A stretch of 64,000 nucleotides of DNA, from the NCBI GenBank assembly GCA_037042915.1, contig CM073202.1, positions 2,728,001 to 2,792,000 on the forward strand. The letters run 5' to 3'. Under the pieces are notes generated by a model that was not told where the DNA came from, made no database searches, and was given only the letters and a program-made list of their open reading frames with translations. Positions within the stretch are counted from its first letter, which is position 1; the number at the start of each line of letters is the position of its first letter. The position numbers and the translations under genes are program-made. This stretch comes from Auricularia sp. M13 (taxonomy: Eukaryota; Basidiomycota; Agaricomycetes; Auriculariales; Auriculariaceae). Positions 20,284 to 54,317 of this stretch are shown piece after piece.

Positions 20284-20391
20284 AGCAACCGGTTGTCGAG
20301 AGGTGTACAGTAGGAACGGCGTTCAATAGAAGCGCACTTCTTGCGCAGCGAGTCTTATCTGCAATGAGGATGTCTCTCACAGGCGAGCTGC

Positions 20392-33479: not shown

Positions 33480-35668
33480 TTATGCAGCACTTGCGGCCCT
33501 CCTAATGAGGTCCACGGCCGCAGGAGAGCGAGGCGTGAAGTGCGGTCGCACTGGCTCAGGGTAACTGGGAACATCATGTTATTGGGAGCTTTCGCCATGC
33601 AGAATCATAGGCAAACCCACCTGACTGCGTCCGATCCTGACCATGTTATCTCCAACTGGACTTCTTTCCCGTTCTCGTCCACCGGTGGGGAAACCCAGAA
33701 TGTTGCCAGGAGTTGCGTTATCATCAGGAAGACCATGTCTTCGGCGACCGATAGTCCAGGGCATACTCTGCGAAATTTTCAGTCCCACAAGCTGGGTTAT
33801 GGACCTCAGATACTCACCGTCTCCCAAATCCGAAGACGTACTGCGAAGGATTCAGCGGGCGCGGTGACGCATCCGGCAAGAATCGCTCGGGCAAAAAGAT
33901 CTCTGGATCATTCAGCGGGCTGCCGTCTTCAGCATGAAGACTCAGGTTCCTGCGGCACTTCAGTGTGCTATCACAAAAAGCTAATGACTTCACTCACCAG
34001 GCGTTGAAGATGACCGTTGCATCTTTGGGAATGAAGTAGCCTGCGTCGTATGGTGAGGCGCACAACTGACTACGAGCGGCGACAGCTCTGTACCTTTGTA
34101 GATGTCGTCCTTTGTCATGCGATGCGGGATGCCAGTAGCCACGCCGACATGCCACCGCATCGTCTCCATTATCAGCGCGTTTACGTACGTGAGATGTTGC
34201 CGATCGGCAATGGTAGGAAGACGTTCCGACCCGACGATACGACCAATCTCTTCCTGGGCTTTGCGCTGCACCTCCGGATACAGTTGCATAGCCGTCAGAA
34301 ACTTGCACACAGTTTGGTCGGTCTGACAAAAGTCTCAGTGTACTGCTGCTGATGGGAGAACACTTGTGACGCACTGTATGGATCCCCGCTGCAGACTGAG
34401 AGTAGGTATGAAGACTACCGATTGAACAGCGCATGACGCACCTAGGTACATCGTCGCTGCTGCCCATTTAAGGGCGTCTTCTTCAGCTGCTTGAGATCCC
34501 AATGACGACTTGACGTCTCCCGCTCCGAGAGCCTCCAAACAGTTCGAGACAAAGGACGGCGGGGCAGAACCCGCAGCCTGTAAATTGTCAGCACATGCCA
34601 TAGAACTGAGTGTAGAAAACTGATTTACCAGTTCCTTCTTGACCAATTCGTAGTACACCGCTGCGTGGCGCTCCAAGATATCGCGCACTTCGATGACATG
34701 GCGCTTGAAGCCTGCTCCAGGAAACCACGAAGGAACGTAGCGCACTGCGGATTTACATTTAGCACGCGCAGACGGATCGATAATCATCACCGTACGGATT
34801 GGAAGCAGCTCGACGAAATATCGCCCGGGAACTAGTGACTCCAGAAAGGAGCTGAGAAGAATATTGCTCATGCGTATGTACTGTCCACGGTTATGTGAAA
34901 ATGAGACAACAGTAACAAATTGGAAATGGCACGCGCACCTCTTCCAAATGAACCTCGGTCGATAGCCCGTATGTTACCGCGAAGATAATTTTACCGATCG
35001 CCCTACCGCGGGTTAATATCAGCCGCTGAGGACAGGCCAGGCATGCGTACAATCTCAGTTCGGTGCCGCAATCCGACTCGTTCTCGAGCATCTTCTTGAG
35101 GAACAGGGCGGTATGTGCCTCGTAGATACCGTGATATTGGCTTGCGACTTGCGGCCCGAATGCGGTGCGTGTCAGCTTGCGCATATACCGGAATCGGGGT
35201 GTCTCCTGTGAGGGCGTTATCCACTATGTTCGTCGTCAGTACTCATAGCAAAAGGATGTGCTGCCAGCAAAACGCAGACCTGATCACTGCCAATCATCTT
35301 TATCATCATAACGTTGGGCCGCCCAGACGCCGTTGCCCCGCGTCTGTCGAGCAGCTCCTTGCACGCCTCAAGAGTATTCAGGATGATTACTGGGTTTCCC
35401 AGGACGCTGACATAGGTAATTTCTCCTGTGGGTTATGTTCGGAGTCACAGAGTCGGAAAGGCGGTCGGCAGCGAGGCGTACCATACTTTGCGCCCCATTC
35501 GCTGAAGCGAAACCAAGACGAGGAGGTGGGCATGTCCAACAGGTTGCCTATCAGCCACTTTGGGGCAGGCCCCGGCGGGTACGGAAGCCCGTGGCGCCGC
35601 CTACGCGACGCGACGAGGAACATGAGCCCAAGACCGGCGAGAATTCCCGCGACTGCTAGATAGGCCAT
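33480..35668 (-). CDS. Cytochrome P450 A
   Basis: A many-exon P450 on the minus strand, about 500 residues after splicing. It has an N-terminal membrane anchor, then RRRRHGLPYPPGPAPKWLIGN, substrate-region blocks (VLGNPVIILNT, YMRKLTRTAFGP), the I-helix microexon AGIHT (34375-34388), ETMR (ExxR), PERF (ERFLPDA) and the haem loop FGFGRRVCPG with the Cys ligand. All joins tested are in phase, so the gene looks functional. It resembles the O-methylsterigmatocystin-oxidoreductase-like P450s of Agaricomycetes; these are ER membrane haem oxygenases of unknown substrate. The ATG at 35668 agrees with paralogue D at 48140. The haem-loop intron starts GTGAGT. It is the mirror partner of D. Confidence 0.88.
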
Positions 35669-36455
35669 AGTTCTCTGCGTGGTGTAGAGGAGAGGTGGGT
35701 TCAACATTTCGTCCAATGGGTGAAGCTAGAGTGGCCGCTTTTGGCCCCCATAAATCTCGGTATCATTTGAGACCGGCTTCGATGTTAGCACTAGCAGCAA
35801 CACGGAACGTGTGGGGCGCTCGTTTCTGGATAGTAAAATGATTGCCCACTCGTGACGGAATTTCGAGAAATATTCAGGTTCGTAGACTTCCGTTCGCAGG
35901 TGGTCGATGAAAGCAAGGATCGGATAGCACTCGTCGAGATGTTCATCTCACGATGTTGTATGCTAGAGCGGCGCGCGGGGGTCTGGGGTGATGCTTAGAA
36001 ATCTCCGGGATGAATGAAAACTTGACAGCACGGGACCGAGAACCCTGGGGGCGAAAGCAGCGCGCGGCGTGCGCGCAACACTTTGCAGCTTCTCGAACCA
36101 AACAGCTCCTCGCGGCGCGGATGTATTGCGGGACATGCAGGCCGAAAGCCAAGCGCACGGCCCGCTCGTGTGAAGAAGTCTGGAAGAGGTCTTGGAGTCC
36201 AAGTCCGAGTAAACAAATACAAACTGCCCAACAAACCATTTATCTCAGCGAACATGGTAATCGCATGGTCGATTCCTCTTGAAAACCAAGCCAGGTAATG
36301 ATGGAGCATCATTCTTAATTTCTTGTCCTTTCTGTTTACGGGGGTACGGTACTGTAGCAAATGATGAAGTTACAGTAACAGGACAAGAGAAACTTGGTCA
36401 TCTTGGTGTTACAACTTGAACCTAGTTTCGCCTGAGATCGCGCGCGGAGAGCGAG
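35669..36455. other. 787-bp intergenic region between P450-B and P450-A
   Basis: Exactly as long as the equivalent stretch 47353-48139, and recognisably homologous to it in its middle and upstream part. It holds the promoter of P450-A. It shows no ORF with support. Confidence 0.6.
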
Positions 36456-38903
36456 TTACTTCACATCGGACTCTCGAGTAGAGCCGGCTTCGCATGCGGC
36501 CTGAATCAACTCGACAGCCTTCGCCGACCGTGGTTTGAGCACTGGATGGAACGGCTCGGGATAGCTGCCAGCAAAATCCCTTGTCAATGACAACCCGTGC
36601 CAACAGATCATCGCGCGGCAGACCTGAAAGCATTTTCGCCCGTCCACCTGAACGTCAGCGGAGCGTCCCCCCTATCCTCGCAGACAGGGCTTGAAATCCA
36701 TGCGGTGGCTAAAATGCTGGATATCGTGAGGAAGAGAATGTTCTCGGCTATGTGGCGGCCCGGGCACATCCTGCTCGAATAAACTGTGTCATTGAAACGC
36801 AGCCTCAGGTGTGCAGTGATCAAGGAGGCTCGCTTGCCTTCTTCCGAACCCGAACACGTATTCCCTCGGGTCCGAAGGACGCATCGACGCGTCTGCACCT
36901 GGGAGAAACCGCTCAGGTATGAAGTCGTCTGGACGGTCCAGCGGTCCGCCGTCCTCTGCGAAGAGGCTCAAATTCCTGTATGTGACGAGAGTGGTGATCA
37001 ACCTCGTCAAAGCCGCATTGAGGCTGCACTAGCACGAACCATTGATTGCAGATAATGTTGGTATCTTTGGCAATGAAGTAGCCTGGCTCATTTTTGTTAG
37101 CCACTCGTAAACTATCGACGGGATTTTGAAACCTTGGTACTCCTCGTCCTTGGTGACCCGATGGGGCAGCCCTACAGCGAGCGCCGGATGCCATCTGTGC
37201 GACTCGGTAATGACAGCGTTGACGTACGGAAGCGCCGCGCGGTCCTCAATAGATGGGAGACGGTCGGCGCCGACGACACGCGCGATCTCCTCCTGCGCCT
37301 TGCGCTGGACTTCGGGGTGTATTTCCATCGCCGCAATGAACTTGACAATCGTATGCACAGTCTAATGATAGCGTAAGCCTCAAAACGCGCTCCGAGTCAA
37401 CTGAGGGAGAACTCGGAACGCACGGTGTGTATCGCAGCTGTCCGAGGCGACATTTAAAGCCCATGTTCATCAATGGGGGTCCCGGGTCTGACGCACCGCG
37501 GTAGATCTCAGACGCGACATACTTCAGTGCAAGCTGCTCGTCGACTTCGGATGCAGACGCCGCGGCGGGGCGCAGCTCGCCGGCCGCCTGTGCCTCGAGG
37601 CAGTGCGAGAGGAAGGACGGCGGCGCTGTGCCCGTTGCCTGTTCGCAGTGAATTCTGAGCTCTCCCTTACCTAACATGACCACTGGCAGCGGTGTCGACT
37701 CACAATTTCCGCTTTCCCCGCTGCGAGAAACGCCGACGCGTATCCCTCGTAGATCTCGCCCACGCGCTGCGCGTGACGCTTGAACCCCGCGCCGGGGAAC
37801 CAGGATGGTATGTAGCGCACTATCATTGGGATGAGTTCAGTCGACGTTGAAACTTCAGCGGGAATAGCTCAGGCGAGACGGATGTACGCACGTATGGGAA
37901 TGGACTCGACGAGGTATTTACCGGGGACCTGTGCCCCGAGGAAGGCTGCGCTCACAATATTGTTGAGGCGGATGAACTGCCAGTGTCCCAGATCGAGTCA
38001 ATTCAGCACCTACAGATCAAGCCGAGCACACGTTGCCACGGGACGCACCTCGTCAAAGTGCCCCTGCATCGGCAAGCCATACGCCACCGAGAAGATGCCC
38101 TTTCCCAACGCACTACAGGTAGAGCAAAGCTCCGTTAGCACCGAGTACATTGTGCAGATAGAGGGGGAGTACGGCGCTCCGACTCACTCTCTAAGCTCCT
38201 CCTCACAATCCGCCTTCTCATCCTCATCTTCAAACATGCGCTTCAAGAAGACCGCCGCATAGAACTTCTGGACGCCGCAGTACGCGTTGATGGCGAGCGG
38301 CCCGAGCGCGGTCTGCATGAGCTTGCGCTGGTAGCGCCACATTGGGGTGTCTTGCGCGACCGACATGTCCTGCAGGTCCAACGTCAAGATAGTGTTTGAC
38401 AATTCGGACTGAGTCGGGGCCTGAGAAAGGACAAGTATAGTACCTGCGACATGCCCATCAAGTCGTGCATAATGCAGAACGGCCGCCCCACGGCACGCGC
38501 CATGAGCTTCTTGCCCGCGTCGAGCGTGTTGAGGATGACGACAGGCTGACCCAGGACGGTCGTGTAGGTGATTGCGCCTGCCATCACGCATCCAAATCAA
38601 GCGCAGGGCAAGGAAAGAGGGAGAGTAAGAGCGATTGCAAAACGTCGTCCGGTGAGCAAATGACGGTAACATAGCGCGTGAGACAGCGTACGCACCGAAA
38701 GTTTTGCCCCACTCGCTGAACCGCAGCCAGGGGAACGACGCGGGGATGTCGAACAGGTTGCCAATAATCCATTTTCCGCGAGGGCCTGGTGGGTTGAGCC
38801 TGCGGCGTTCGGAGAGCCGGCTGCTGCTGCTGTGGACGATCTGGATGAGCCCCGCGGCGCCGAGGCACAAGACCACGCCGCTGAGCCAGATGGATTGGTC
38901 CAT
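36456..38903 (-). CDS. Cytochrome P450 B
   Basis: A many-exon P450 with an N-terminal anchor (LSGVVLCLGAAGLIQIV), then LNPPGPRGKWIIGN, FSEWGKTFG, DMSVAQDTPMWRYQRKLMQ, SWFPGAGFKRH, a 14-nt I-helix exon AAIHT (37424-37437), ESHR (ExxR), ERFLPG and the haem loop FGFGRRMCPG. All joins examined are in phase, so it appears intact. The haem-loop codon is split by an intron starting GCAAGC (36771-36837), a GC-AG intron. Its close relative C at 45-47 kb is broken. The substrate is unknown. The ATG at 38903 begins the membrane anchor. Confidence 0.87.
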
Positions 38904-39429
38904 GATGCGAAGGTGACGAGAGTGAGAGGCGGTTAACAGGCCAAGGGAAACACTGAGAGGATCCAGCCAAGTGCCTATGATCGCTGTAATAAAAGGCTGC
39001 TGGCAGGCGCGGGTGCATATGACAGTAGCGGGCGGGGCGCTCGCGAACCGCAGAAGCTCGCAAACACCTGGAGGGCATGCCAAAAGCGTATCCGGCCTTT
39101 CGTCCAAACGAGCAGTACCCCATAAAGCACGCAGTAACAGTCCAGGTATAGCCAGTGGTGCTTGGTGGCGCTCGCGTCTCCATGCACCAAGCTGAAGCAA
39201 GGAAGCCTGGAGCGGCCACACCGACCACCGAAAGGGTGATGATAAGTCGACGTGGTAGATTATAAGTTTGACACAATACCAGTAATTCATACATCATAGA
39301 GCTACACAACCATGTCAAGGCGCCGGGCGGGCTGTGTGCGAAGGACTTGCCAGCCTGAGGCAAATGGCGAATATTAAGCATCCGTACACACAGATGGACA
39401 ACGGTATGGGGACGTACCCAGAGGTGCAC
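38904..39429. other. Upstream region of P450-B
   Basis: The first 220 bp are homologous to the region upstream of P450-C (shared GGCCGGATACGC-like block). Beyond about 39130 no match is seen. No gene is supported. Confidence 0.5.
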
Positions 39430-39790
39430 CGCTCATATGCCGCCTTGTACATTCGGCCTTGAGCAGGACAAGCCGCTCGACGAGGTCGCTGTAGAACTGC
39501 ACCAAACGACTTGTTAGCAACCGGAAGTGCACACCTTGAGTCCCTCCCCTCGTCAAGGTCGCCATTTTCCTTCACTTAGAGCACATGCGCATGCTGGAGC
39601 TCTGGAACGTCGCGTCGGTCGCCTAGCCATCCACTGGCAGTCAGCAAAAATGCAGCGCAATGCAGAATGCACCTTGACGCGCTCGACCAAGTCCCGCAGC
39701 TTCCCCCGCCGTCATTGGCAGCGAGCGTCGCCTCATACCGTCCGCCCTCGTCGATCGCGTCCCCGAACAGCGGCGACGTCGACTCCGCGG
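39430..39790 (-). pseudogene. Broken copy of the 3' half of the BRO1 gene
   Basis: On the minus strand this stretch repeats blocks of the BRO1 gene at 41.4-41.8 kb: FGDAIDEG plus RYEATLA, the GLGRARQG-like segment in a shifted frame, and QFYSDLVERLVLLKAEC (compare QFYNDLAERLVRLKAEC). The frame is disturbed and the N-terminal half is absent, so it cannot encode BRO1. It is in the same orientation as the parent, a direct, not inverted, copy. The neighbouring plus-strand gene begins only about 60 bp away. Confidence 0.75.
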
Positions 39791-39852
39791 CGTTTCTGGC
39801 GCCGCCGAACGTTTCAAACCCCGCACATCCCTCTCTCGCCCGTCCACTTCCG

Positions 39853-40784
39853 ATGAGCAACCCAGTTGCGACTGCAAGTGCCGCGCCTGCGGCCGGCCAC
39901 ATTCTACCAGCTGCCCCCAATATCGTCCTCGTTTCCGGTGCGCAACTGCGCCCTCCGCTCGCCGATGTGGCAAACGGCATTGTCACTGAAAACGACATCG
40001 TGGAAGCCCACCAGTGGCGTTCTTCTGTATCTCAACATGCCAGTAAGCTTGGTGTGCCTGTTTCTGTGACATTGCTCATGGATCGCATAGGCCTTGGGCA
40101 TATCGTCGATGACTTCAAGGCCGTTGCGCTTGCCGAGACATATGTCACTCAGCTTGAGTGCCTGTATGAAAAGCCCGTCGTCAGCCTTGCAGACGTCATG
40201 GCTGCCATCGATAACCTGACTACCATCGTAACAAACAATGCGTCAAGTGATAAAAACAATCTCGCTAGGCTCACCGACAACGTTGCGAGCCTCATCAACA
40301 ATGTTGCCAACCTCACCAACAATGTTGCCAACCTCACCAGCAATATTTCCGACCTCACCAACAACGTTGCCAGCATTTCACGAAAAGTCTCGCAATACGG
40401 ACGCCTTTCGGCGATCGTGCGTTTCTCGTCGGACTTGGCTAGCTGTGCCTGCCTCCTCACCGTATGCATGCAGACTTTCAACGCTTCATGCGGCGATGGC
40501 GACCTTCGCGAATACGTCGTTGTGCCAAACCTTGCGGGCGAGGACCCCACAGATCGGGTATGTGGATACATCCTGCTATTGTCCACGAGTATTCTGATCT
40601 CCGATGCCAGCTGCCTCTCCCCAACCTTCCGCACATCAGACGTCTATCCGACATCATAGCGTTGTCCCATGTCCAGCTGATGGGGTACTGCAACTTTTAT
40701 GGCGTGGATCCGAACGGAACACCGGCCAGCATCTTGCGAGGCATCGCAGCGGCCATCGGTGTTGCGTCCTCAATGCGGGTGTAG
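39853..40784 (+). CDS. Hypothetical protein with heptad repeats, possible Mug135-like C-terminus
   Basis: Three exons (39853-40416, 40474-40557, 40611-40784) give 273 codons plus stop; the introns are 57 and 53 nt. An Ala/Pro-rich start is followed by a helical middle and five near-copies of a seven-residue unit (NNVANLT, also DNVASLI, SNISDLT, NNVASIS). They would form a coiled coil. The C-terminal part (LPNLPHIRRLSDIIALSHVQ, then YCNFYGVD and ILRGIAAAIG) resembles the Mug135-like domain found in many agaricomycete proteins, but I am not sure. The function is unknown. An ORF extends upstream to 39667 in frame, but that part is the reverse strand of the BRO1 copy, so I take the ATG at 39853. 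Confidence 0.6.
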
Positions 40785-41131
40785 GGTTCGCACTCTCGTG
40801 TTGTGTTGCTTTTGCTGCTTTGCCTCCTGCTGCCACTGGTGGTCTGAATGTCGTGATTTGTTTTAGTTAGTTTTGTTAGTTTTGCTGTGATGAATCGAGC
40901 TCTTTCGCCTGTGCTTTGACTTGCAACTTACGTCTCTACCAGTCTGCTCCTCAAGCTATCAAGGCTCGACCTGTTCCGAGTCCATGCACAGCAGAGCAGC
41001 AGTGCCCCGTTGCCCCGCGAGGACACGATGACACAACAATCGGTACAACATAGCATATACAGCATTCGCGCACGCGTAGAGCTACACAACGTCAACCATT
41101 CTGGGGCCCACCGGCAGCACCGGACAGTCAG
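40785..41131. other. Intergenic, tail to tail
   Basis: 347 bp between two stops. A T-rich stretch (TTAGTTTTGTTAGTTTTGCT, about 40865) probably lies in the 3' untranslated region of the preceding gene. Confidence 0.5.
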
Positions 41132-44100
41132 TCAGCGCTTGCCGCTCACTTTGAGCTTTCCAAAATCCTCCCATTCGTCCGAGTCGGGCGGCGGCAGGAA
41201 CGCTCCTGCAGCCGCGGCCGCGGCCGCCTTCTTCTGCTTCTTCGGCGTCGGGTCGGGAGGCGGTGGTGGGGGATTGTGCGCGGAGGACCTGGCCGACGCG
41301 CGTCGTCAGCATTCAACGCGGCTGGTACTGTAGGCAACGGAGGACGTACCCTGCCGTGCGCCGCTCATACGCCCAGCTCGTGCACTCGGCCTTGAGCCGG
41401 ACGAGCCGCTCGGCGAGGTCGTTGTAGAACTACACCAAAAAAGTCTTGTTAGCGACGCGGGAACTGACGACTGACGAAGGAATGCACACCTTGAGCCCCT
41501 CGTCGAGGTTGCCGTTCACCTCGACATAGAGCGCGTGCGCGTTCTCCAGCTCGCGCAGCTTCTGCTCGCGCGCGCGCACCGCGGCGCTGCCCTTGCGCGC
41601 GCTCTTGAACGTCTCGTCCGCAGCCTACACGGTACACAGTCTCTCAGAAACAACGCATAGAAAGAACGAAACGAGAAAAAAAGGCACGAGACGCACCTTA
41701 ACGCGCTCGACCAACTCGCGCAGCTCCTCCCGGCCCTCCTCCACACTCGCCAGCATCGCCTCATATCTTGCGACGCCCTCGTCAATGGCGTCCCCGAACA
41801 GCGCGGGCGCGACGCGCTTCCAGCGCTCCATCCCGCGCACCAGGCGCTCCACGCGCCCCGTGATGTCGTCGCTCTCGGCCGTGCTGCGCGCGTTGGTGGC
41901 AATGTGCGCGACGCGCGCGCGCGCGTCGTCCAGCTCGTCGAGCGCCGCGCGCAGGGCGCGCGACTCGGCGCTCGTTGCTGTGGGGCCGGTGCTGGAGGGG
42001 ACGGCCTTCTCCAGGTCCTCCTGTGCGAGAGCAACGCGAAGGATAAGGGTGAGTGAGCGAGTGAATGGGGGCAACCGGAAGATCGGGGGGAGAGAGAGAA
42101 GAGGCAGCGCACCTCCTCCCACGCAAGGACCTCGACGAGCGTCTCGGCCTGCTCCCACTTGTCCCGCACGAGCGCGTCGCTGGTCCCCGCGGCGTCCAGG
42201 TGGCCGAGGTACGCGCGCGCGCGGTCCACGAGCTCGCGCGGCGGGTCGTCCTCCGCGTCCAGGATGTCAAATGCCTTTCCGAAACCCCTCCATTAGCAAT
42301 GTGGGGTTTCATACTGGAAACCTGCAGACGCACTTCATCTAACGCAGCGACGTCCGCCCGCCGCACGGCGTCGAGCGCCTCTTGCTTGCGGCGCACGCGC
42401 GCCGGGCCGTCCTCCAGGCGCACCTGCTGCGCCTTTCCCAGCAAGCTCGGCGGCAGGCCAACGGGGCGCTCCAGAGCCTCCAACGCTGCCGGAAGTCCGA
42501 GCGCGCGCAATGCCCTGGCCATCTATGAGTATGCTGGACCGAAAAAGGGAGGAGAGTAACTGGTAGCATACGCAGCGACTTCGGCCTCGGCCTCCGCGAC
42601 GGCACTCTCCACCTCGCGCACGGCCGTCTCTTTGCGCTCTTTGAAGACGTCTGCGATTTTGTTATCAAATCAGCGCCATCCCAGCTTATATTGCAAAGGG
42701 AAGGACGCACCGATAGCAACACGCGCGCCCCACGGCACCAAGCCAGCAAACAAGCCGTCCGCGTCGCCCAGCAGCGCCGCCGGGTCGCGCATCGGCGCCG
42801 GCTGTGCGAGTCGCGCGCCGCGCAGGGCAGGCAGCGCGCCGAACGGCGGGACGGTCGCGTGGTAGATGAGGTCGTTGTCGCGTTCGGCGCGTGCGAGCGC
42901 CGCGTCCAGTTTGGAAAGTAACGTCTGTGGGGGAGCGTCAGCGTGGATGTGATGGGCACAGGATATGGATGGGAGTTTGAAGGCAAGGTTTGGACTCGCC
43001 TTGATGTCGTCTAGCACGGCGGGCGCGACGCGTTTTGCGGCCGCGACGCCGCGCTGGGCGTCTGCTTTCGCCTTTGTCAGACGTGCAATTTCCTCGCCGA
43101 ATCTGAGAACTGGTTGAGTGAACGTGGGTATGGGGCGGTAATAACTTTGCACACCTCCGCTTGTCGAGGTCGTCCATGCTGGCTCGGTATTGGGCAGCAG
43201 CCGCGAAGTGTAGTGTCTTGGTTTGTACATGCGATGCCCAGGCCTGCCAAACGGTCAGTTTGAGATGAAAATCGTCGATGACCACGGCGGCACAAGTCTC
43301 CAATCGTCCGCGACGCGAGAAAAGAAGCTTCTCAGCTCGCGTCGAGGACGGCAACGGAGTGCCAGTGTTCTCACGCGGCAGTCTTTCACCTGCCGCAATG
43401 ATCTTTCGCGAGCCATAATACCAAATCTATGCTTACCGAAGGCGGAGACGTTGCCGAAGCGTACAGCGCGGAAACCTTTATTCCAAGGTGTTCAGTGAAA
43501 GGAAAGTCTGAAAGGACAAGTCGACGTGCATACCTCTTGCGAGATCTTGGCGATCGTCCCATCCGATGTATGGTCTATCTCGCGTTCAGTGCACCCGTCT
43601 CCTGCGCACAATCAAACTCACTGAGAATGGCGAGCTGCCACGCGCACTCCTGGGCCTGAGCGAGCAAGACGGCGCGCACGCTGCGCACAATATCGTCCTC
43701 CAAGTCCTCATCGCGCAGCCCGTCGTCGTCCGTAATGCTGAGCAGATAGTCGAGCACGCCGGCAGCACTGGCGTACCCCGCTGCGGCCTTTCGGATGCCG
43801 TCGACGCTGGACCGGTCCGCACCGCTCGCGAGTTGGACGTACAATGCCGCCGCGTTCCACAGCACCGCGCGCCGCTCGTAGTCCAGGCTGGCGTGCGTCG
43901 TCGGTGTCCCACGCGGGTTGAAGGCCGGCGCGTAGGCGACGTCCAGGCCGATCTACAGGGCGCATTGTGCGTCAGGCGGCATACAAACGAGTTGCTCGCA
44001 GGCGCCACGCACGTCCGACGGCAGCTTGGTGAGCGCGTACGCCAGCTGGGCATGATATCTACGCATAGCGTACTCAGTATCTCAACAATTTCGTAGCTGC

Positions 44101-44288
44101 AGGACGCACTGCAGCGCGGCCTCGGGCGATTGCAAGGCGGCGGCGCGCAGCGACTCCCAGCGTGCAATGTCGGGCTTGAACGCGTCCGGGTGGGTGTATG
44201 GGTGGTGCTGGCGTATATGCGCCTTGAGCGCGTTGGACAGGTCCCAGTTCAGTGGCTGCTTCAGCGGCAGCGTGAGCAGGTTGGGCAT
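41132..44288 (-). CDS. BRO1-domain protein (PalA/Rim20 or Bro1 type)
   Basis: A multi-exon gene (about 12 exons). The BRO1 domain begins at the ATG 44288 (LLTLPLKQPLNWDLSNAL, HPDAFKPDIARWESLR) and continues through YERRAVLWNAAALYVQLAS and AQECAWQLAILS. A helical V-domain-like region follows (VPPFGALPAL, RVERLVRGMERW, FGDAIDEGVARYEAMLASV, FYNDLAERLVRLKAEC). The end is Pro/Ala-rich and finishes DEWEDFGKLKV. BRO1 proteins bind ESCRT-III Snf7 at endosomes. The HPDAF-type start resembles PalA/Rim20 of the alkaline-pH pathway, but Bro1 (vacuolar sorting) cannot be excluded. It sits inside the spacer of the P450 inverted duplication, and a broken copy of its 3' half lies at 39.4-39.8 kb. Confidence 0.8.
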
Positions 44289-44972
44289 GTGGCGCGCCGC
44301 AAAGGAGATCGAGAGCGGAGATTGCGCGCAGACTCCGACTCTTGTCCTCGGTGATCATCCAGTGATCATCCCAAGTCGGCAAAAATGGAGAAGGGTACAA
44401 GGTCCAGGTATCTAGGATGGCTCAGGATGTTCAGCTGCCTGGAAACGCGCTCGATCGCTCCAGAATGCCCCAACGGCCTCGAGTTCCTCATCGCGCAGTC
44501 GCCGTGTTCCAGTTCGCTGTTGGCTTCGAGGGCGTCATGGTGCTCAGTTCAGTTTCTTCTTTCAGTTTCTTCTCAGATACAGGAACAGAAGCCTATATAT
44601 CCCGCCGTCAAACTCCCTACTAGTCAACATGGGCCCTGTTCCGGTGTATCGTTCTCCTCAGCTGCTCCCCGCGTCGCTAGTTCCGCCGTTCCCGAACAGG
44701 CGCACGTCACAAGTGAACCCTCAGCCATAATTGGAGCTTGGAGTCTCTGAATACGCTGCCTGTGTGGGGTACTTGCTGCTCTTTTTGTCGAAATGCCGGA
44801 TACGCCTTTGGTAACAGCCCTGTTCACAACGATTCTGTCCGCTACCTTCTGGGATTCTTGAGCGCCTCGCCCAGAACCCACTGCGAATGCTTTATGCACC
44901 CTTCCCGGGGAAGCGGACTTCATCCTTGACTTGTTGCCTTCAATGATGGACTGACAAGCCGCCTGTAGCTCC
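44289..44972. other. Divergent region between BRO1 and P450-C
   Basis: 684 bp. The last 220 bp match the region upstream of P450-B in reverse orientation. ORFs on both strands (up to 121 codons) show no family. Confidence 0.5.
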
Positions 44973-47352
44973 ATGGACAAATCCACCCAATGGCTGACTG
45001 GAGTAGCCTTATGCCTCTCCGTCGCAGCTCTCCTGCATATAGTCCAAATCGCTCTCAGTAACAGCAAAAGTAGCAGAAAGTTGCACCCGCCAGGCCCGCG
45101 CGGCAAATGGCTCATCGGCAACCTGCTCGAAATCCGTCCTGCCCCTGGTTCCGGTTTAGCGAGTGGGGTAGAAACCATGGTGAGTTCAACGCCGTCACAT
45201 GTCCCGTTTCGCTGCAGGACGCTTACTCTCTTTCTTTCTTCCACTCTTATTCTTGCCACACGCATGATGAATCGACGACAGGCGCAATCACCTACGCGAC
45301 CGTCCTAGGCCAGCCGATCGTCATTCTCAACGCGCTCGACGCGGCCAAGAAGCTCATGGCACGCGCCGCGGGGCGGCCGTTCTGCGTCATGCACGACTTG
45401 ATGGGCATGTCGAAGGTAAGTCTTACTATATGTAATTTTCCCTCTCTTGTCATATTATTCCGAGACTCGAATCCTCAATATCACTTCCTCAGAGTCAACG
45501 CTGACACGCTGCCTGCGATGCAAGACATGTCGGTCTCACAAGACACCTCGACGTGGCGCTACCAGCGCAAGCTCACGCAGACCGCGCTCGGGCCGCACGC
45601 CGTCAAGGCGTACTGCAGCGTCCAGAGGTTCTATGCGGCGGTCTTCCTGAAGCGCATGTTTGAGGATGAGAAAGCGGATTGCGAGGAGGAGCTCAGAGAG
45701 TGAGCCTCCCCTCCTCCGCGGTCTGCGCGACGTAGTGACGGAACTTTGATCCATAGTGCGTTGGGCAAGAGCATCTTCTCAGTGACATACTTACGGCCTG
45801 CCGACTCAGGGACATTTCGACGAGGTTCGTCCACGGTCGAACTGAACGGAGAGTCGCGGTGGCAACGCCCATAAGTACTGATGCGTTTGCTTTGGACATT
45901 CGCAGTTCATCCGCCTCAATAGCATCGTCAGTGCGGGCTTCCTCTCCGCGCAGGTCCCGGGCAAGTATCTCGTCGAGTCCTTTCCCTTGCGTGAGTACTT
46001 CCGCCGTGATTTGATCGCTGCACTTGAAATTCATTGGCAGTCCGCTACATTCCCTCCTGGTTCCCGGGTGCGGGCTTCAAGCGCCAAACGCAGCGCGTGA
46101 GCGCGATCCACGGGGGGGGGTACGCCTCTGCGTTCTGCTCCGCGGCGAAAGCGGAGATCGTGAGTCCATGCGGACGGGCGAGTTGACTATAATTAGGCCA
46201 AGGGCACAGCACCGCCGTCCTTCGTCTCCGCCTGCCTCGCAGCGCAGGCAGCCGGCGAGCTGCGCCCCGCCGCCGCCGAAGTAGACGAGCAGCTCGCGCT
46301 CAGGCATATTGCGGCTGAGATGTACCGCGGTGCGTTCTATGTGGGCGTCCCTGAGTCTCCGACGCTCAAATGGAATGGCAGCGGCGATCCACACCGTACG
46401 TCCGATTCCCGCATCCGACCTCCGACTCAATACTGCAGCTCTCGCCAGACGGCGCACACGGTCGTCAAGTTTGTCGCGGCGATGCAGATATACCCCGACG
46501 TCCAGGGCAAAGCACAAGAGGAGATCGCGCGCGTCGTCGGCGCCGACCGCCTCCCCGCCCCCGAGGACCGCGCGGCGCTGCCCTACGTCAATGCGGTCAT
46601 CACCGAGTCGCACCGATGGCATTCGGGGCTCGCCATCGGGCTTCCCCACCGCATGACGAAGGACGAGGAGTACAAAGGTAGCATTCCAACAAGTCACCCT
46701 GGGACGTTGGCCGCTGATGAATCGATGAATTGCAGGCTATCTCATTGCAAAAGATACGAACGTTATCTGCAATCTCTGGTCCGTATGCGCGATTCTCCGA
46801 GCCGATCGAGCACTGGCAGATTATTCACGCACGGCTCGTCACCCCAGGCACCTCAGCCTTCTCGCAGAGGACGGCAGCCCGCTCGAGCGCCCAGACGAAT
46901 TCATACCTGAGAGATATCTCCCCGGCGCACCGGCAGCGATGCGAGCCCCAGAGCCGAGGGAATACGTGTTCGGGTTCGGGTTCGGGCGAAGGTTCGCTCC
47001 GCTGGTTTCCACAGTTTTGAGTGCTGACAGTGACATCGGAATGCTGCAGGATCTGCCCAGGCAGCCACCTTGCGGAGAACATCCTGTTCCTCACGATATC
47101 GAGCATACTCGCGACGGCGTGGGTCTCGAGTCCCAATGGAGACGATGTGTCGCTGACCTTTGAGTGGTCGGACGAAGACACTTCCAGGTCTGCCGCGTTC
47201 TGAGGTGTTCGCAATTGTCATTGATGCGTGATTCCATTGGCAGCCATCCCGAGCCGTTCCATCCGGTGCTCAAACCTCAGTCGGCGAAGGCTGTTGAGTT
47301 GATCGACGCCGCATTCGAAGCTGGCTCTGCTCGAGGGTTCGAGGCAAAGTAA
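44973..47352 (+). pseudogene. Cytochrome P450 C, broken paralogue of B
   Basis: It follows P450-B exon by exon: anchor, HPPGPRGKWLIGN, FSEWGRNHG, YQRKLTQTALGPH, SWFPGAGFKR, I-helix exon AAIHT (46382-46395), ESHR, PERYLPG, RICPG and a C-terminus SHPEPFHPVLKP. Two frame breaks are visible: one base is missing where GNLLEI should meet PSCPWF (about 45133), and an extra TTAC-like insertion interrupts VTY-GLP (about 45790). The haem loop has an extra GF (FGFGFGRR). There is also a run of G (46111-46120) that happens to keep frame. It is most likely a pseudogene, still rich in P450 sequence. The intact partner is B. Confidence 0.82.
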
Positions 47353-48139
47353 TTTAATGGCTGCACGGTTTCAAGTGCATCCTAAAGCACCCAAATTGGC
47401 CGTTTCTCATGTACTGTCGTTTTAGTTTTATCAGTTTTGATCATATCCTCTGAGGAGCCTATTTCCATGATCCTCGAGTTGTACGAACTCGAAAAATGAT
47501 AATAACTCCTGTCTCAAGCCCTCATTCAAAATTATACTTCCGGACAATGCAATTTGCATCTGTTTACTCAAACTTGTCCTCCAGGTCGTCACCGCGAGAG
47601 GCCCGAGCGAACTCTTCGCTTGTATCTCCCGCACTGGACCCGCGCGCATGCGCATGAGGAGCCATGCGGTTGCGGAAGTTACAAGCTTCGGTCTGCGCGC
47701 CGTTCTTGCCGCCACAGTTCGCGGCCGCGAACCGTCAAGTTTTGATTCAGCCCGCAGATTCCTAAGCTTCGTCACAGACACTTGCGTACGTTTATCTATT
47801 CGCTTTTCAGCTCTCGGCCTCTGGATGACGATGCCATAGAACCGACCAAGAGCTCTGCGGTGCTCGTGTTCAATATCTAAGTTAGCCTTCTAGCGCAGCG
47901 AGGTCATGATCATGAACCAGGAATTTGAAAGCAACTGTTTCCCAAGGTTGTGTCACGAACGAGCAATTATTTCTGTATCCAGTAACGAGCGCTCCGTCCT
48001 GCTGTCAGTGTCAATGTCCGAGGCAGATCCTCAAATGACGCCGGAATTTATGGGTGCAAAAAGTAGTCTGTGTGGCCCTCTGCTTCTCGCATGTGACGAA
48101 ATGTTGATCACATCTCTCTTCCCTACTACGCAGTGAACC
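47353..48139. other. 787-bp intergenic region between P450-C and P450-D
   Basis: Mirror counterpart of 35669-36455, of the same length. Alignable blocks include a shared GTCAAGTTTT segment followed by a CTAAGC block. It holds the promoter of D. Confidence 0.6.
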
Positions 48140-50335
48140 ATGAACTATCTAGCAATCGCAGGAGCTGTCGCTGGTCTTGCGCTCACGTTCCTCGTCGCGT
48201 CGCGCAGGCGGCGCCATGGTCTTCCGTACCCGCCAGGGCCTGCCCCAAAGTGGCTGATAGGTAACCTATTGGACATGCCCACCTCCTCGTCTTGGCTCCG
48301 CTTCAGCGAATGGGGCGCAAAGTATGGTACGTATGGTATCACGACCGGTACGCGTCTCTGATTACAACCCACAGGCGAAATTACCTACGTCAGCGTTCTG
48401 GGAAACCCGGTCATCATCCTCAACACCTTCGATTCGTGCAAGGAGCTGCTCGACAGACGCGGGGCAACGGCGTCGGGGCGCCCCGACGTAATCATGCTCG
48501 AGATGATAGGCAGTGTCAAGGTCAGGGCTTTTTTGTTGGTGCTTCATTTTCTGTGTACACTGACTCCTATGGGTGAAGGGTATCACACCATCCCAGGAGA
48601 CGTCCAGATGGCGGTATATGCGCAAGCTCACACACAGCGCATTCGGACCACAGGTTGCAAGCCAATATCACTCCATCTACGAGTTGCATACCGCCCTTTT
48701 CCTCAAAAGGATGCTGGACAGCAAGTCGGATTGCGCGGCCGAGCTGAGACTGTACGCAGCAGCCTACGGTCTCCAATCTCCTGTCCTCAAAGGCTAATAT
48801 GAATCCGCGGCAGCGCGATCGGTAAAATCATCTTCGCGGTGACATACGGTTTATCGACTGAGGCTCACCTGGAAGAGGTGCGCGTGCCATATCCCGTCCG
48901 TTAATGCTCGCTCACTATTACATGAACGCGGCCAGTATATACGCATGAGCAATATTCTTCTCAGCTCTTTTCTGGAGGCGATAATGCCGGGGAGATATCT
49001 CGTCGAGTTGCTCCCATTCTGTAAGCGGATGACTTCAGATCCAGCTACGTGAAATAAAACTGAGTCCGCAGTGCGCTACGTTCCGTCGTGGTTTCCCGGG
49101 GCAGGGTTCAAGCGCTACGCAAATGAAGTGCGCGATATTTCCGAGCGTCACGCTGCGGTTTACTACGAACTCGTCAAGAAGGAACTGGTAAGTTATGGCC
49201 GAGACAATGAAGTCTGTGTACCGTGCTGACGGTGTCCAGGCTGCAGGTGCCGCTCCACCATCCTTTGTAGCAAACTGTCTGGAGGCCCAGGCTTCGGGAG
49301 ATGTCAAGTCGTCGTTGGGATCTCAAGAAGCTGAAGAAGACGCGCTGAAATGGGTAGCAGCAACGATGTACCTGGGTGTGTGTCTACCGCTTTATAGGTA
49401 ATATTCATACCTAATCCCAGTCTGCAGCAGGAATCCATACAGTGCGTCGCAGGTGCTCTCCCATCGCCTGCAGCAGGCTGACTCGAGAACTCCTGTACAG
49501 ACCGACCAGACTGTGTGCAAGTTTCTTACAGCTATGCAAATTTATCCGGAGGTGCAGCGCAACGCCCAGGAAGAGATTGCTCGTATCGTCGGGTCGGAGC
49601 GTCTTCCCTCCATTGCCGATCGGCAACATCTCCCGTACGTAAACGCACTGATAATGGAGACTATGCGGTGGCATCCCAGCGTGGCTACTGGCATCCCGCA
49701 TCGCATGACGAAGGACGATGCCTACAAAGGTGAGGTCCCGTCGCCGCTTGTAGTCAGTGGTATGTGCCTCACTATACGGCTCAGGCTACTTCATTCCCAA
49801 AGATGCGACCATTATCTTCAACGCCTGGCGAGTGGGGTGATCAGCTATCTGTATTAACTGATTTAAAGTGCCATAGGAACATGAGTCTTCACGCTGAAAA
49901 CGGCAGCCCGCTGAATGACCCAGATGCGTTCCTGCCCGAGCGATTCTTACCGGATGCCTCACCGCGTCCCCTGAATCCTTCGGAATATGTCTTCGGATTT
50001 GGGAGACGGTAAGTATCCGCGTTTGATATTCCAACTTGCGGGACGTATAAAAATGCAGAGTATGCCCTGGACGATGGGTCGCCGAAGACATGGTCTTTCT
50101 CATGATAACTCAACTCCTGGCAACGTTCTGGATATCTCCACCAGTCGACGAGAATGAAGTTCAGCTGGACATTTCGTGGACGAGATCAGACGCAGTCAGG
50201 TGAGATCACTTGTGGTGCGGTTCAGACTACTAGTGAGACGATCTATCTAGTTACCCTGAGCCATTGCGACCGCGCTTCACGCCGCGCTCTCCTGCCATTA
50301 AGGATCTCCTTAAAAGGGCGGCAAGTGCTGCTTAA
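48140..50335 (+). CDS. Cytochrome P450 D
   Basis: Mirror partner of A, with the same exon layout. Anchor from MNYLAIAG, then LPYPPGPAPKWLIGN, FSEWGAKYG, VLGNPVIILNT, YMRKLTHSAFGPQ, IGKIIFAVTYGL, SWFPGAGFKRY, the 14-nt I-helix exon AGIHT (49428-49441), ETMR, ERFLPDA, FGFGRR with VCPG after an intron (GTAAGT), and the C-terminus AIKDLLKRAASAA. All joins checked are in phase, so it looks intact. It is an ER membrane mono-oxygenase with an unknown substrate. The second-exon donor follows MIGSVK and the next exon begins GITPSQET. Confidence 0.88.
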
Positions 50336-50861
50336 ACCAACACGCGCGAAGTTCAGATCCGCTACTTCGAGGGAACCTGCTTGTTTCGGTTGTCCCACCA
50401 TACTAGTATGCTGCAGTTGAGATGGGTCGCAGGCAGGCGGCTGCAGCAACAGGAGCAAACAGGCAAAATTACCATAACCAATGAGCACGAAGCCTACGCC
50501 AGCCGCAAGATGCTGTCGGCCGTTCCGTTTGGATCAGCTCCATAGGCGTGACCGAACCCGCGGGCCGTTGCAACTTACCTACCTACCGTGAACCTTATCT
50601 AAACGGTACTATTACCGACTGCCACCTGGTCGCTGTATGCCACAGCCTGCTATGCGCGTGCTGTAGAGCCAGCGCGAATAGCTGCCTGCGCGCTCATGAG
50701 CAAACTTGCTTATCAGCTGGTTTCAATGAATGCCTGACCCTGTGCGATACCGCTGTCGAGGGCTCTCGGGGCCGACTCTCGACGTCTCGCGTCTTCGGTT
50801 GCACTACGCCTATTGCCTATCACTGCAGGTGTGCATCTTTGCATCTTCGACAACCACTGTC
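50336..50861. other. Intergenic between P450-D and P450-E
   Basis: 526 bp with the promoter of E. No supported ORF. The first bases after the stop of D resemble those after the stop of A. Confidence 0.5.
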
Positions 50862-53800
50862 ATGTTGCGCACGAATCGTTCCACTTGGACTGGCCTCGCG
50901 TTGACATGCGTCGGCGCGGTGCTCATCATCATAATTCGCGATCGAAGTCGGCGACGCAAGCTGCCACCCGGTCCGCGTCCACAGTGGCTCATCGGGAACC
51001 TATTCGATATCCCGAGGGCTTTTCCGTGGCTTCGCTTCAGCGAATGGGGCAGAACGTATGGTGCGACATTGACTCTTAATTAAATGTGCTGCTATCATCC
51101 CGCTCAACGTGAACGTTGGCCTTAAGGTGAGATAAGCTATGCAACGATCCTCGGAAAGCCGCTCGTCGTCCTCAACTCGCTCGCGGCGTGCAAGGAGCTC
51201 ATGCCGAGCGCGTCCGGGCGACCGCCGAGCATCATGATCGAGCTACTGGGCATGTCTAAGGTGTGAGGTCCAAAAGCATGCTCCCGTCATGCAGTCGCTG
51301 TGAAGGCTGATTTTCTGAGTTTCTTTAGGACATGACGAATCAGCAAGAGACGCCCATGTGGCGATACGGAAGACGGCTCACACAGAGCGCGCTCAGCCCT
51401 CAGGCCGTGAGAGCATATTCTGGGCTTCAGCAGATGCACGCTGCGACTTTTATAAAGAGGATGTTTGATAATCCCAAGGCCAACTGCATGGAGGAGCTGA
51501 GAGAGTTAGTCGTAGTTTGCTGCCAGTGACCTGAACCTTCTCGCTTATAGCCCTCACAGCGCGTTGGGAAAGGGTATCTTTGCTGTGACATACGGCTTAC
51601 CGACTAAGGATCTCTTCGACGAGGTGGGTGGCGGACTGGGATACTGGCGCCGTTTACTGTATGATTGATGCACCCCAAAGTTCATGCGCCTCAACAAAAT
51701 CGTGAGTGAAGCATTCTTCCCAGCGATGGAGCCAGGGAGGTACCTCGTCGAGTCCATTCCCATCCGTGAGTATTCGTCTTGTGAGTGACGCCCTCTGATA
51801 TTGCTGCTGAGTCCGCTACGTACCATCCTGGTTTCCCGGCGCTGGCTTCAAGCGTTACGCCCAGCATATCAACCGTTACTTCGAGCAGCATGCATCGCTA
51901 TGCTTCGAAGCTGTTAGAGGGCAAATTGTGAGGTGTAGGGCAGAGAGGCTGGTCTGTGCACCTGAACTCATCCTCGTCTTTCTTCGTTGGATAGGCTGCA
52001 GGCACGGCGTCGCCGTCCTTCGTCACGAACTGTCTTGAGGCGCTGGCAGCCAATGATTCGAAAGACTCTCGGCTTCCGTCCCGTTTACACCAGGAAAACG
52101 CCGTCAAATATGCGGCGGGGGAAATGTACCGTGGTGCGTTGTTTTGACCGGAACTGCGATACATTCTCATTGAAAGTACTGCAGCCGGGACACACACTGT
52201 GAGCGTCCAAAACGCTCAATCATCGGTGAAACAATCACTAACGGTATATTAGACTGTACAGACGGTGGTCAAGTTTATTACGGCGATGCAGCTGTACCCC
52301 GCGGTCCAGCGCAAAGCCCAGGAAGAGATTGCACGTATCGTTGGCCCAAATCGCCTCCCCTCAGCCGAAGATCGGGATTCTCTGCCGTATCTACACGCGC
52401 TCATTACTGAGTGCCATAGATGGCATCCTTCGGTCGCGCTGGGGATTCCTCATCGCACAACGAAGGACGAAGTTTACCAAGGCATGTGGCCATGTTGAGA
52501 TGTGTGAATTACCCTTCTGAAATAGCGTGCCCTAAGGCTATCTGATTCCCAAGGACACATCGCTGTTCTGTAACCAATGGTACGTCTTAGCCCGGTGTTT
52601 GCGCGACGCCGACTTGGATAACGAAACTTATCACAGGAGCCTGAGCCTCATCGCCGACGATGGGACACCGCTGGACTCCCCAGACGACTTCAGCCCCGAG
52701 AGATTTCTTACGGACGCGCTCGCACGTCCTCTAGACCCGAGAGAATACGTTTTCGGATTCGGGAGAAGGCAAGTGCTCACATGCCCGCGTCCAGCATCCT
52801 GAGTATGGAAAGCCGGACTGACCAGCTTCGGGTTTGATGCTGATTGATGCGCGGAGCAATCCATCGAGCACGTTCCGAGAGACGAATCAACAGTGCAACA
52901 GTCAACGCGGAGGTAATGTGTTACGGCCGCCAGTCTGTCCGTCGGTCGCTGCGCCCAGCGACGGACATCACGTCGATGGCGAGGCACGTGACCACGTCAT
53001 GGCTACTGCCTTACTGCAATCATCTCAATGAGCATCCGAGACTGGTATTCCCGTAGCCTATCCGGTAACTATGAGCCAGTTACAGTCACATAGCCCAGCA
53101 GAAGTACAAGCTTCGCATGCGAGTCCAAGGCGGCAAACTCTGCAATTGGCGCTATACGTTCTAAGTGAACCTCTTCAGCATGGTCGCTCAACTTCAGGTC
53201 GCCATTCCGTTTCTGCGCGACAGCACTGAGAAGGGTACAGGTGTGAGAAATATCCTGGACTCCTGGTCAGCTCTGTTGCCAGCGGCCATGCGCTGGGTGT
53301 CGGCCTTGCTACCTGCGGCTAGTTTTGTCAGAGAGAAAGCTTTGCCGATTGCGATCAGGCCTCATGCATGGAAACGCGGAGATGGAAGTGTGGGTTCAAT
53401 ATAAGATTGAGTGCGATGTCGTGAACCACAACTGCTTTTGACTTGAGGAGAGCAGGTGAAATATGCCGTGTTCGTGGCCCGCAGAGCGGAGAGCGAGGCC
53501 CTGGTGGTATTCAACTGATCTGCCGCTGCAGAGGTAGCACACGAATGTGAGGACATCATTGGGTACGATTAATCAAGAATAAACATCTCAGATTGGCAAT
53601 GCAAATCCAGGAGCTTGAAAGCAAAGCTGAGTTCTGTAATATACCGAAGAGTCCCAATCTCCTCTTCTAGTCTAAGTGCATGAATTACCTTCAACATCAG
53701 CTGCTTGCTGAGCTCATCCCTCGTAAGTGTGACTCTTCTAGCTTCCAATCCTGTTTCTTACAACGTAATTGAGCTCACTGGTAGAGCTGCAGCCTTTGCT

Positions 53801-54317
53801 AGGCTGTGCCCCGCCAGCGACGCCGGCGGTCATTCTCTAAGCTCGATGACCGGACATACTGGCGGTCGTAACACATTATCTCCGTGCTGATTGTTGCACC
53901 ATTGATTTGTCTCTCGGAACATGCTCGTTGGATTGCTCCGCGCTTGATCGAGTATCAGATCCGAAGCTGGTCAGTCCGGCTTTCCATACTGAGGACTAAC
54001 AGCAACATCAAATCTGAACAGAATCTGCCCTGGCCGCTATCTCGCGGAAAATATCTTGTTTCTCACTATCTCAAACATATTGGCGACCACCTGGATATCG
54101 AACCCGGTCGACGGGTGCGGAAACGAGATTCCTCTCGCCCTCGAGTGGACGGGCGAGGACCTTATCAGGTCGGTATTTCGCGCTATTTACGATTCATCCT
54201 GCGTCACTAACGGACACTCTCAGCTTTCCAAAACCCTTCCAGCCATTGCTCAAACCTCGTTCATCTATGGCTGTCGAGTTGATACACGCAGCATCTGAAG
54301 CTGGCTCAGCTCGCTAA
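50862..54317 (+). CDS. Cytochrome P450 E with an oversized haem-loop intron
   Basis: Anchor LALTCVGAVLIIII, then LPPGPRPQWLIGN, FSEWGRTYG, ILGKPLVVLNS, WRYGRRLTQSALSP, SWFPGAGFKRY, the 14-nt I-helix exon AGTHT (52185-52198), ECHR, ERFLTDA and FGFGRR ending at 52768. The exon is followed by GCAAGT, a GC donor. The next matching exon (AATCTGCCCTGGC, giving RICPGRYLAEN, from 54022) and the last exon (54224-54317, SFPKPFQPLLKP) lie 1.25 kb away, while all paralogues have about 60-70 nt there. Phases agree, so E may be one gene with a long intron, or the tail may belong to a second, lost copy. The intron before GYLIPKD also starts GC. Confidence 0.65.
52769..54021 (+). other. 1.25-kb insertion inside the haem-loop intron of P450-E
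   Basis: No intact gene is seen. Near 53680 a short frame (NYLQHQLLAELIP, then a GT donor) weakly resembles the P450 exon ending LVESIPI, so it may hold part of a decayed P450 copy. I find no clear terminal inverted repeat or target duplication at its edges. Confidence 0.4.

What the first reader, a model, noticed from the sequence alone, without database searches (positions are those of the whole stretch)
34375..52198. A 14-nt microexon in all five P450 genes encodes the I-helix signature
At 34375-34388 (A), 37424-37437 (B), 46382-46395 (C), 49428-49441 (D) and 52185-52198 (E), an exon of exactly 14 nt, bounded by AG and GT, encodes A-(G/A)-(I/T)-H-T. The frame is one base plus 14. Introns on both sides are about 50-75 nt. 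Such tiny exons are easily missed by gene prediction, so annotations of this family may lack the oxygen-activation motif.
Basis: seen in the sequence. Interest (0 to 1): 0.75.

Follow-up and report, generated by a model that had tools for sequence, protein, structure and literature searches.

The report
Tiny exon encoding P450 catalytic motif
Five neighbouring fungal cytochrome P450 genes carry the heart of their oxygen-activating site on an exon of only 14 letters; tiny exons at this site are already known from another wood-decay fungus, so this is a clean extra example with one unusual amino acid.

Summary
At all five coordinates there is an AG|14 nt|GT segment, and G+14 reads A-(G/A)-(I/T)-H-T. 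Spliced alignment gives 13-exon P450 genes; the 14-nt segment is exon 8, between introns of 51-62 nt. Among frame-keeping paths of up to two introns it scores clearly best in 5 of 5 genes against solved P450 helices. Skipping it, or retaining either or both flanking introns, gives an early stop in all four intact genes. Copy C has two frameshifts (pseudogene or assembly error).

The residue before the catalytic threonine, normally Asp/Glu, is His in all five copies, as in CYP51. And the class is known: Nelson & Syed (2026) report an 8-nt I-helix micro-exon in Phanerochaete CYP5141A1 and say there are several; Doddapaneni et al. (2005) found microexons in nearly a third of that fungus's P450 genes.

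Best reading: an obligate, constitutively spliced microexon inherited before the duplications. RNA evidence and other fungal genomes were not available. New member of a known kind; modest interest.

The parts
33480..35668 (-). P450 gene A, 13 exons, 512 aa, intact (5' border of exon 3 differs between templates)
   Evidence: spliced alignment and translation without internal stop; PF00067 201.3 bits
34375..34388 (-). gene A exon 8, 14-nt microexon, (G)CG GGG ATC CAT ACA = AGIHT
34389..34441 (-). gene A intron 7, 53 nt, phase 1, gtgcgt..ctgcag
34323..34374 (-). gene A intron 8, 52 nt, phase 0, gtgcgt..tgtcag
36456..38903 (-). P450 gene B, 13 exons, 536 aa, intact
   Evidence: PF00067 196.5 bits
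37424..37437 (-). gene B exon 8, 14-nt microexon, AAIHT
37438..37496 (-). gene B intron 7, 59 nt, phase 1
37362..37423 (-). gene B intron 8, 62 nt, phase 0, weak acceptor attag
44973..47352 (+). P450 gene C, frameshifts near 45133 and 45788: pseudogene or assembly error
46382..46395 (+). gene C exon 8, 14-nt microexon, AAIHT
46330..46381 (+). gene C intron 7, 52 nt
46396..46448 (+). gene C intron 8, 53 nt
48140..50335 (+). P450 gene D, 13 exons, 510 aa, intact (5' border of exon 3 differs between templates)
   Evidence: PF00067 212.5 bits
49428..49441 (+). gene D exon 8, 14-nt microexon, AGIHT
49376..49427 (+). gene D intron 7, 52 nt, phase 1, gtgtgt..ctgcag
49442..49500 (+). gene D intron 8, 59 nt, phase 0, CTGAC about 20 nt before the 3' end
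50862..54317 (+). P450 gene E, 13 exons, 523 aa, intact; intron 11 enlarged by a 1.2-kb inverted-repeat element
   Evidence: PF00067 191.3 bits
52185..52198 (+). gene E exon 8, 14-nt microexon, AGTHT
52134..52184 (+). gene E intron 7, 51 nt, phase 1
52199..52252 (+). gene E intron 8, 54 nt, phase 0, CTAAC about 12 nt before the 3' end, weak acceptor attag

Best explanation
Each gene carries an obligate, constitutively spliced 14-nt exon (exon 8 of 13) between two short introns, phase 1 upstream and phase 0 downstream. Shown from sequence: G from exon 7 plus the 14 nt encode A(G/A)(I/T)HT, and joined to exon 9 they give an I helix that aligns without a gap to solved P450s; leaving the exon out shifts the frame. 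Inferred: the two 51-62 nt introns are recognised one at a time by intron definition, so the exon need not be defined as a unit, and after the first splice it is part of a normal-sized exon. Inferred: both introns predate the duplications that made the five copies, and the motif is held by selection on the enzyme rather than by a regulatory role of the exon. Inferred, and much less certain: in the enzyme the His-Thr pair replaces the usual acid-Thr pair in delivering protons to the iron-bound oxygen, as in CYP51. The confidence given is for a real and obligate exon, not for the role of His.
For: All open frame-keeping paths of 0-2 introns (at least 36 nt each) between fixed anchors were listed; the 14-nt path scores best in 5 of 5 genes against the CYP1A1/CYP2B4 helices, 21/10/12/21/22 against second-best 6/3/4/3/4. 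Pfam p450 score, microexon model against one same-length alternative each: A 201.3/189.2, B 196.5/187.7, D 212.5/196.9, E 191.3/182.6. Intron phases 1,0,2,0,1,0,1,0,1,2,2,2 are identical in the four intact genes at 53-86% protein identity; exon 9 is 229 nt and exon 10 is 43 nt in all five. The exon drifts mainly at third positions. In exons 7-10 dN/dS is about 0.15 for A-D, the eight distant pairs have pS 0.63-0.83, and A, H and T of the motif are invariant. Donors of introns 7 and 8 score 6.5-8.0 against a mean of 5.7 for the 40 other introns of the intact genes. Skipping exon 8, or retaining intron 7, intron 8 or both, gives a stop at codons 305-416 against 511-537 in 4 of 4 intact genes. 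Solved P450s align without a gap through the motif, with F-D-T or T-E-T opposite I-H-T, in the five alignments shown. Elsewhere, cDNA-based gene structures of two Phlebia brevispora P450 genes include 13-bp exons between introns of 49-58 nt (PMC3292997, passages), so exons of this size are spliced in an agaricomycete.
Against: No transcript evidence. With the motif residues masked, my aligner preferred a single longer intron in 3 of 5 genes (A, C, D); with the CYP2B4 helix as template it missed the exon in C and took a 20-nt exon in E. The templates and the required length come from the alignment of the microexon-bearing D model, so that test is not wholly independent. Acceptors of intron 8 in B and E (attag) score 1.13, just under the lowest of the 40 other introns, 1.21. 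A YT(A/G)AY branch-site-like word was found in 6 of the 10 flanking introns. In C, retaining both introns keeps the frame open. In D a 21-nt alternative exon also contains AGIHT, with a shifted helix register; it was not scored against Pfam, nor was the second-best alternative of A. The proton-delivery role of His is by analogy only.
Confidence: 0.9

Rival explanations
1. The exon is a regulated switch: it is skipped, or a flanking intron is retained, under some conditions to turn the enzyme off through a frameshift and transcript decay.
For: Skipping or retention gives an early stop in 4 of 4 intact genes, which is what an off-switch would need; two splice variants were reported for CYP63A1 and more were proposed for other microexon P450s of Phanerochaete (PMC1184071, passages); a microexon switch acts in Trichoderma Xlr2 (PMC11121469, passages).
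Against: Donors are strong. The flanking introns show no conservation beyond that of another intron: introns 7 and 8 are 36-73% identical between copies, intron 9 is 41-79%. PMC11121469 notes that microexons are usually multiples of three, which lets both forms keep the frame; 14 is not.
Confidence: 0.07
2. Another splice pattern is used (one long intron, a 10-, 20- or 21-nt exon, or other acceptors), and the 14-nt exon is a coincidence of AG and GT.
For: Frame-keeping alternatives exist: 64, 12, 25, 147 and 48 open paths in A-E (the 14-nt path counted in), of which 8, 2, 3, 12 and 3 give a helix of the same length. Without motif information the aligner took one long intron in 3 of 5 genes.
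Against: Every other path of that length scores 6 or less against solved helices, against 10-22 for the 14-nt path. The four alternatives tested lose 8.7-15.6 Pfam bits. Shuffles rarely match. Same length, position and reading in five copies.
Confidence: 0.03

Closest known systems
I-helix micro-exon of CYP5141A1, Phanerochaete chrysosporium (Nelson & Syed 2026, PMC12940212; parts 1 and 2 of 3 of the text read)
   Same: A tiny exon in the same I-helix O2-binding motif of an agaricomycete P450. From the notation gg/cac/gag I infer the same order of phases, 1 then 0. [quoted passage not shown]
   Different: 8 nt covering G-H-E of AGHETT and keeping the acid; here 14 nt, reaching one codon further on each side (A-G-x-H-T), with His in place of the acid, and kept in five neighbouring paralogs.
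Microexons of the P. chrysosporium P450ome (Doddapaneni et al. 2005, PMC1184071; abstract and passages seen)
   Same: Exons coding for 2-10 aa, many small introns, tandem P450 clusters with shared exon sizes; nearly a third of the P450ome shows microexons.
   Different: The passages seen do not tie the microexons to the I helix and do not mention a 14-nt exon with A(G/A)xHT.
13-bp exons of the CYP63A-like genes pb-1 and pb-3, Phlebia brevispora (PMC3292997; passages seen)
   Same: Microexon of nearly the same size between short introns in agaricomycete P450 genes, with gene structures based on cloned full-length cDNAs.
   Different: Fifth exon, phases I and II, far upstream in the gene; the passages do not place it in the I helix.
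One-nucleotide exon of Fusarium CYP621A (PMC12940212)
   Same: A micro-exon inside a conserved P450 motif, needed to join out-of-phase exons and missed by nearly all the gene models the authors list; confirmed there by RNA reads.
   Different: PKG motif, ascomycete, 1 nt.
CYP51 His-Thr pair in the I helix (PMC9519919, passages seen)
   Same: A histidine directly before the conserved threonine, where most P450s have Asp/Glu (the latter recalled; AGXDTT is given as the I-helix motif in PMC8949155).
   Different: These proteins match animal CYP1, CYP2 and CYP17 best by sequence and CYP51 is not among the 60 hits shown of 224; no sterol role is suggested.

Membership tests
Cytochrome P450 superfamily (PF00067) | Match to the family profile above the curated cut-off | tested here: met
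   A 201.3, B 196.5, D 212.5, E 191.3 bits against a cut-off of 22.8; C not scored
Cytochrome P450 superfamily (PF00067) | ExxR in helix K, PERF, and FxxGxRxCxG with the heme-ligand Cys | tested here: met
   ETMR/ESHR/ECHR, PERF, FGFGRR(V/M/I)CPG in the four intact proteins
Cytochrome P450 superfamily (PF00067) | (A/G)Gx(D/E)T(T/S) in helix I | tested here: not met
   A(G/A)(I/T)HTT: Thr present, acid replaced by His in all five copies, Gly replaced by Ala in B and C. The acid is usual, not universal; CYP51 also has His, so membership is not in doubt.
Microexon | Internal exon of 30 nt or less between GT-AG introns, coding and in frame | tested here: met
   14 nt, GT-AG both sides, phases 1 and 0
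Microexon | Inclusion in mature transcripts | not testable with these tools
   no RNA data at hand and no whole genome held
I-helix micro-exons of agaricomycete P450s (PMC12940212) | Micro-exon covering the I-helix O2-binding motif | tested here: met
   ungapped alignment of the spliced D product with CYP1A1, CYP2B4 and CYP2B6 helices; A, B, C, E align to D without a gap there
I-helix micro-exons of agaricomycete P450s (PMC12940212) | Same intron positions as CYP5141A1 | tested here: inconclusive
   By the notation in the paper both borders differ by one codon; the Phanerochaete gene itself was not available
CYP51 | Sequence membership in the CYP51 family | tested here: inconclusive
   Best solved relatives are CYP1A1, 2B4, 2B6, 1B1 and 17; CYP51 not in the 60 shown of 224, the other 164 not seen
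CYP5144/CYP5152/CYP5037 | Nomenclature assignment by identity (more than 40% to a named member) | not testable with these tools
   No fungal P450 collection at hand. The double Arg in the heme motif is given as characteristic of these three families (PMC8949155, passage) and is present here, which is only a hint.

The most novel reading that the evidence does not exclude
A P450 lineage outside CYP51 has fixed a CYP51-like His-Thr pair for oxygen activation and carries it wholly on an obligate 14-nt exon. Because predictors drop that exon, the lineage's proteins would be recorded in databases as lacking the motif, hiding a second group of His-Thr P450s in wood-decay fungi.
Probability: 0.2. Interest if true: 0.5.

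Novelty: new member of a known kind. Interest (0 to 1): 0.3.

Why it matters
It is a clean sequence-level case of a catalytic motif carried on an exon too short for most gene finders, kept in four intact paralogs, most pairs of which are near or at synonymous saturation. It warns that fungal P450 models may lack the I-helix motif through annotation error, and it gives a test set for microexon-aware gene prediction. The His in place of the acid is a testable point of P450 chemistry.

Tried and rejected
Own genome: none is held for this window, so further copies in the species could not be counted. Relatives in public contigs: a protein scan of viral contigs (gene D protein) and of genome contigs (gene E protein) found none; by their descriptions these collections hold viral contigs and bacterial and archaeal genomes, so this says nothing about how widely the exon is kept in fungi. 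Short-peptide search of solved structures with the C helix gave two superoxide dismutase chains at E 1.3-1.4, chance hits. Literature searches for the motif letters, for a 14-nt exon and for a His-type I helix in fungal P450s listed no paper on this exon; a search on the acid-alcohol pair with CYP51 found none. The library holds only openly licensed papers. The branch-site scan was not decisive.

Rejected: chance AG..GT spacing; CYP51 as the family (only partly tested); regulated switch as the main reading (no sign in the introns).
Full report
Observation. Re-seeding with other paralogs (E for A, B and D; B for C and E) gave the same exon 8 in all five. Genes A, B, D and E translate without internal stops (512, 536, 510, 523 aa) and share intron phases 1,0,2,0,1,0,1,0,1,2,2,2; exon 9 is 229 nt and exon 10 is 43 nt in all five. 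The 5' border of exon 3 in A and D depends on the template; this does not touch exon 8. Protein identity among the four is 53-86%. They match Pfam p450 at 191-213 bits. tblastn gave no hit starting outside 33400-39000 and 44900-54400, the spans that hold the five genes.

Gene C. Alignment to gene B needs a one-base loss near 45133 in exon 1 and a surplus near 45788 in exon 4 (sequences), and the translation of its model as it stands has five internal stops. It is a pseudogene or carries assembly errors. Its exon 8 and both flanking GT-AG pairs are intact, and exons 7-10 show few replacement changes against B (pN 0.093, pS 0.427).

Is the exon real? (i) Between the anchors M/I-Y in exon 7 and K-F in exon 9, every GT/GC-AG path with 0, 1 or 2 introns of at least 36 nt that stays open was listed: 64, 12, 25, 147 and 48 paths in A-E. 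Of those, 8, 2, 3, 12 and 3 give a helix of the expected length. Scored against the helices of CYP1A1 and CYP2B4, the 14-nt path wins in 5 of 5 genes (21, 10, 12, 21, 22 against 6, 3, 4, 3, 4). The helix register was taken from the alignment of the D model, so this test is not wholly independent of that model. (ii) With outer sites fixed and the DNA between shuffled, 0, 4, 3, 1, 0 of 2000 reach the observed score. (iii) Pfam prefers the microexon model over a same-length alternative by 12.1, 8.8, 15.6 and 8.7 bits in A, B, D, E. The alternative tested was the second-best in B and E, one of two tied second-best in D, and the third-best in A. (iv) The exon drifts like coding DNA: variable columns 0/5, 2/5, 5/5 by codon position, P = 0.010; pairwise differences 0, 10, 33.

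Results against. When the motif residues of the seed were masked, the aligner kept the exon in 2 of 5 genes (B, E) and otherwise used one long intron; with the CYP2B4 helix as seed it kept it in 3 of 5 (A, B, D), used one intron in C and a 20-nt exon in E. This aligner charges a fixed cost per intron and knows no splice-site strengths beyond GT/GC and AG, so it also illustrates why automatic annotation may drop the exon. Acceptors of intron 8 in B and E are weak; donors are strong. There is no RNA evidence.

What it encodes. The spliced D product aligns without a gap to solved P450s: AG-F-D-T (CYP1A1) and AG-T-E-T-T (CYP2B4/2B6) lie opposite AG-I-H-T-T (five alignments shown). The residue before the catalytic Thr, normally Asp or Glu, is therefore His in all five copies, and A, H, T, T are invariant, although the eight distant pairs have pS 0.63-0.83, near or at saturation (exons 7-10). 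Within the same exons dN/dS is about 0.15 for A against D. CYP51 has a signature His at this place; in eukaryotic CYP51s substrate binding frees a helix-F acid from a salt bridge, which activates proton delivery (PMC9519919, passages). That the His here works likewise is inference. Among solved structures these proteins are closest to animal CYP1, CYP2 and CYP17; CYP51 is not among the 60 hits shown of 224.

How it works. Flanking introns of 51-62 nt are of the usual size in these genes (46-76 nt for 38 of the 40 other introns of the intact genes, the other two 118 and 1253). This suggests recognition across the intron, one intron at a time; the exon itself is too short to be defined as a unit (general knowledge of splicing, not tested). 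Since 14 is not a multiple of three, leaving the exon out shifts the frame; skipping it, or retaining either or both introns, gives a stop at codons 305-416, against 511-537 for the full proteins, in 4 of 4 intact genes. In C, retention of both introns leaves the frame open. The exon is therefore best seen as obligate and constitutive, not a switch. The shared phases and position point to two intron gains before the duplications (inference).

Known or new. Microexons are common in Phanerochaete P450 genes (PMC1184071, abstract and passages), and 13-bp exons stand in cDNA-based structures of two Phlebia P450 genes (PMC3292997, passages). [quoted passage not shown] The present exon is the same kind, one codon longer on each side by their notation. 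No paper on this particular 14-nt exon was listed in the ten searches, which cover openly licensed papers only and whose listed papers were mostly not opened. I file it as a new member of a known kind. The double Arg in FGFGRRxCPG is given as characteristic of CYP5144, 5152 and 5037 (PMC8949155, passage), a hint but not an assignment.

Limits. No fungal genome collection, RNA data or annotation was available, so spread across fungi, inclusion in transcripts and the state of public gene models remain untested.

Noticed in passing
52769-54021 (intron 11 of gene E): The intron is 1253 nt against 50-67 nt in the paralogs; it holds a 1199-nt segment bounded by 145-nt inverted repeats (52797-52941 and 53851-53995, 86%), with CTGAG at 52799-52803 and 53989-53993 (read by eye) as a possible target duplication. 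Without it the intron would be 54 nt. Looks like a non-autonomous inverted-repeat transposon; no second copy in the window.
   Followed up: partly
44973-47352 (gene C): P450 copy with a frameshift near 45133 and another near 45788; where B has CAG before GACATG of exon 3, C reads CAA (by eye). Pseudogene or assembly error.
   Followed up: partly
15730-20322 (-): Single open frame of 1531 aa with copia-type gag and reverse transcriptase domains above Pfam's cut-offs and a weak integrase match below it: a Copia retroelement.
   Followed up: no
22269-22366 (+) and 22554-22651 (-): Two Rfam tRNA matches with equal scores on opposite strands, each spanning 98 nt and so probably with an intron; ARAGORN with bacterial settings reported none.
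   Followed up: no
36771-36837, 49828-49876, 52482-52536, 52769-54021: GC-AG introns in genes B (intron 11), D (intron 10) and E (introns 9 and 11), by the models.
   Followed up: no
54567-56489 (-), 25878-26654 (+), 23449-24291 (-), 10802-12337 (-): Neighbours by Pfam: sugar transporter, GMC oxidoreductase, DEAD/Helicase_C; and F-box plus leucine-rich repeats below Pfam's cut-offs. Only 20 long open frames were scanned.
   Followed up: no
60361-63534 (-): Open frame of 1058 aa (stop to stop) in the GC-rich end of the window (0.61-0.69 GC) without a Pfam match at E 0.001.
   Followed up: no
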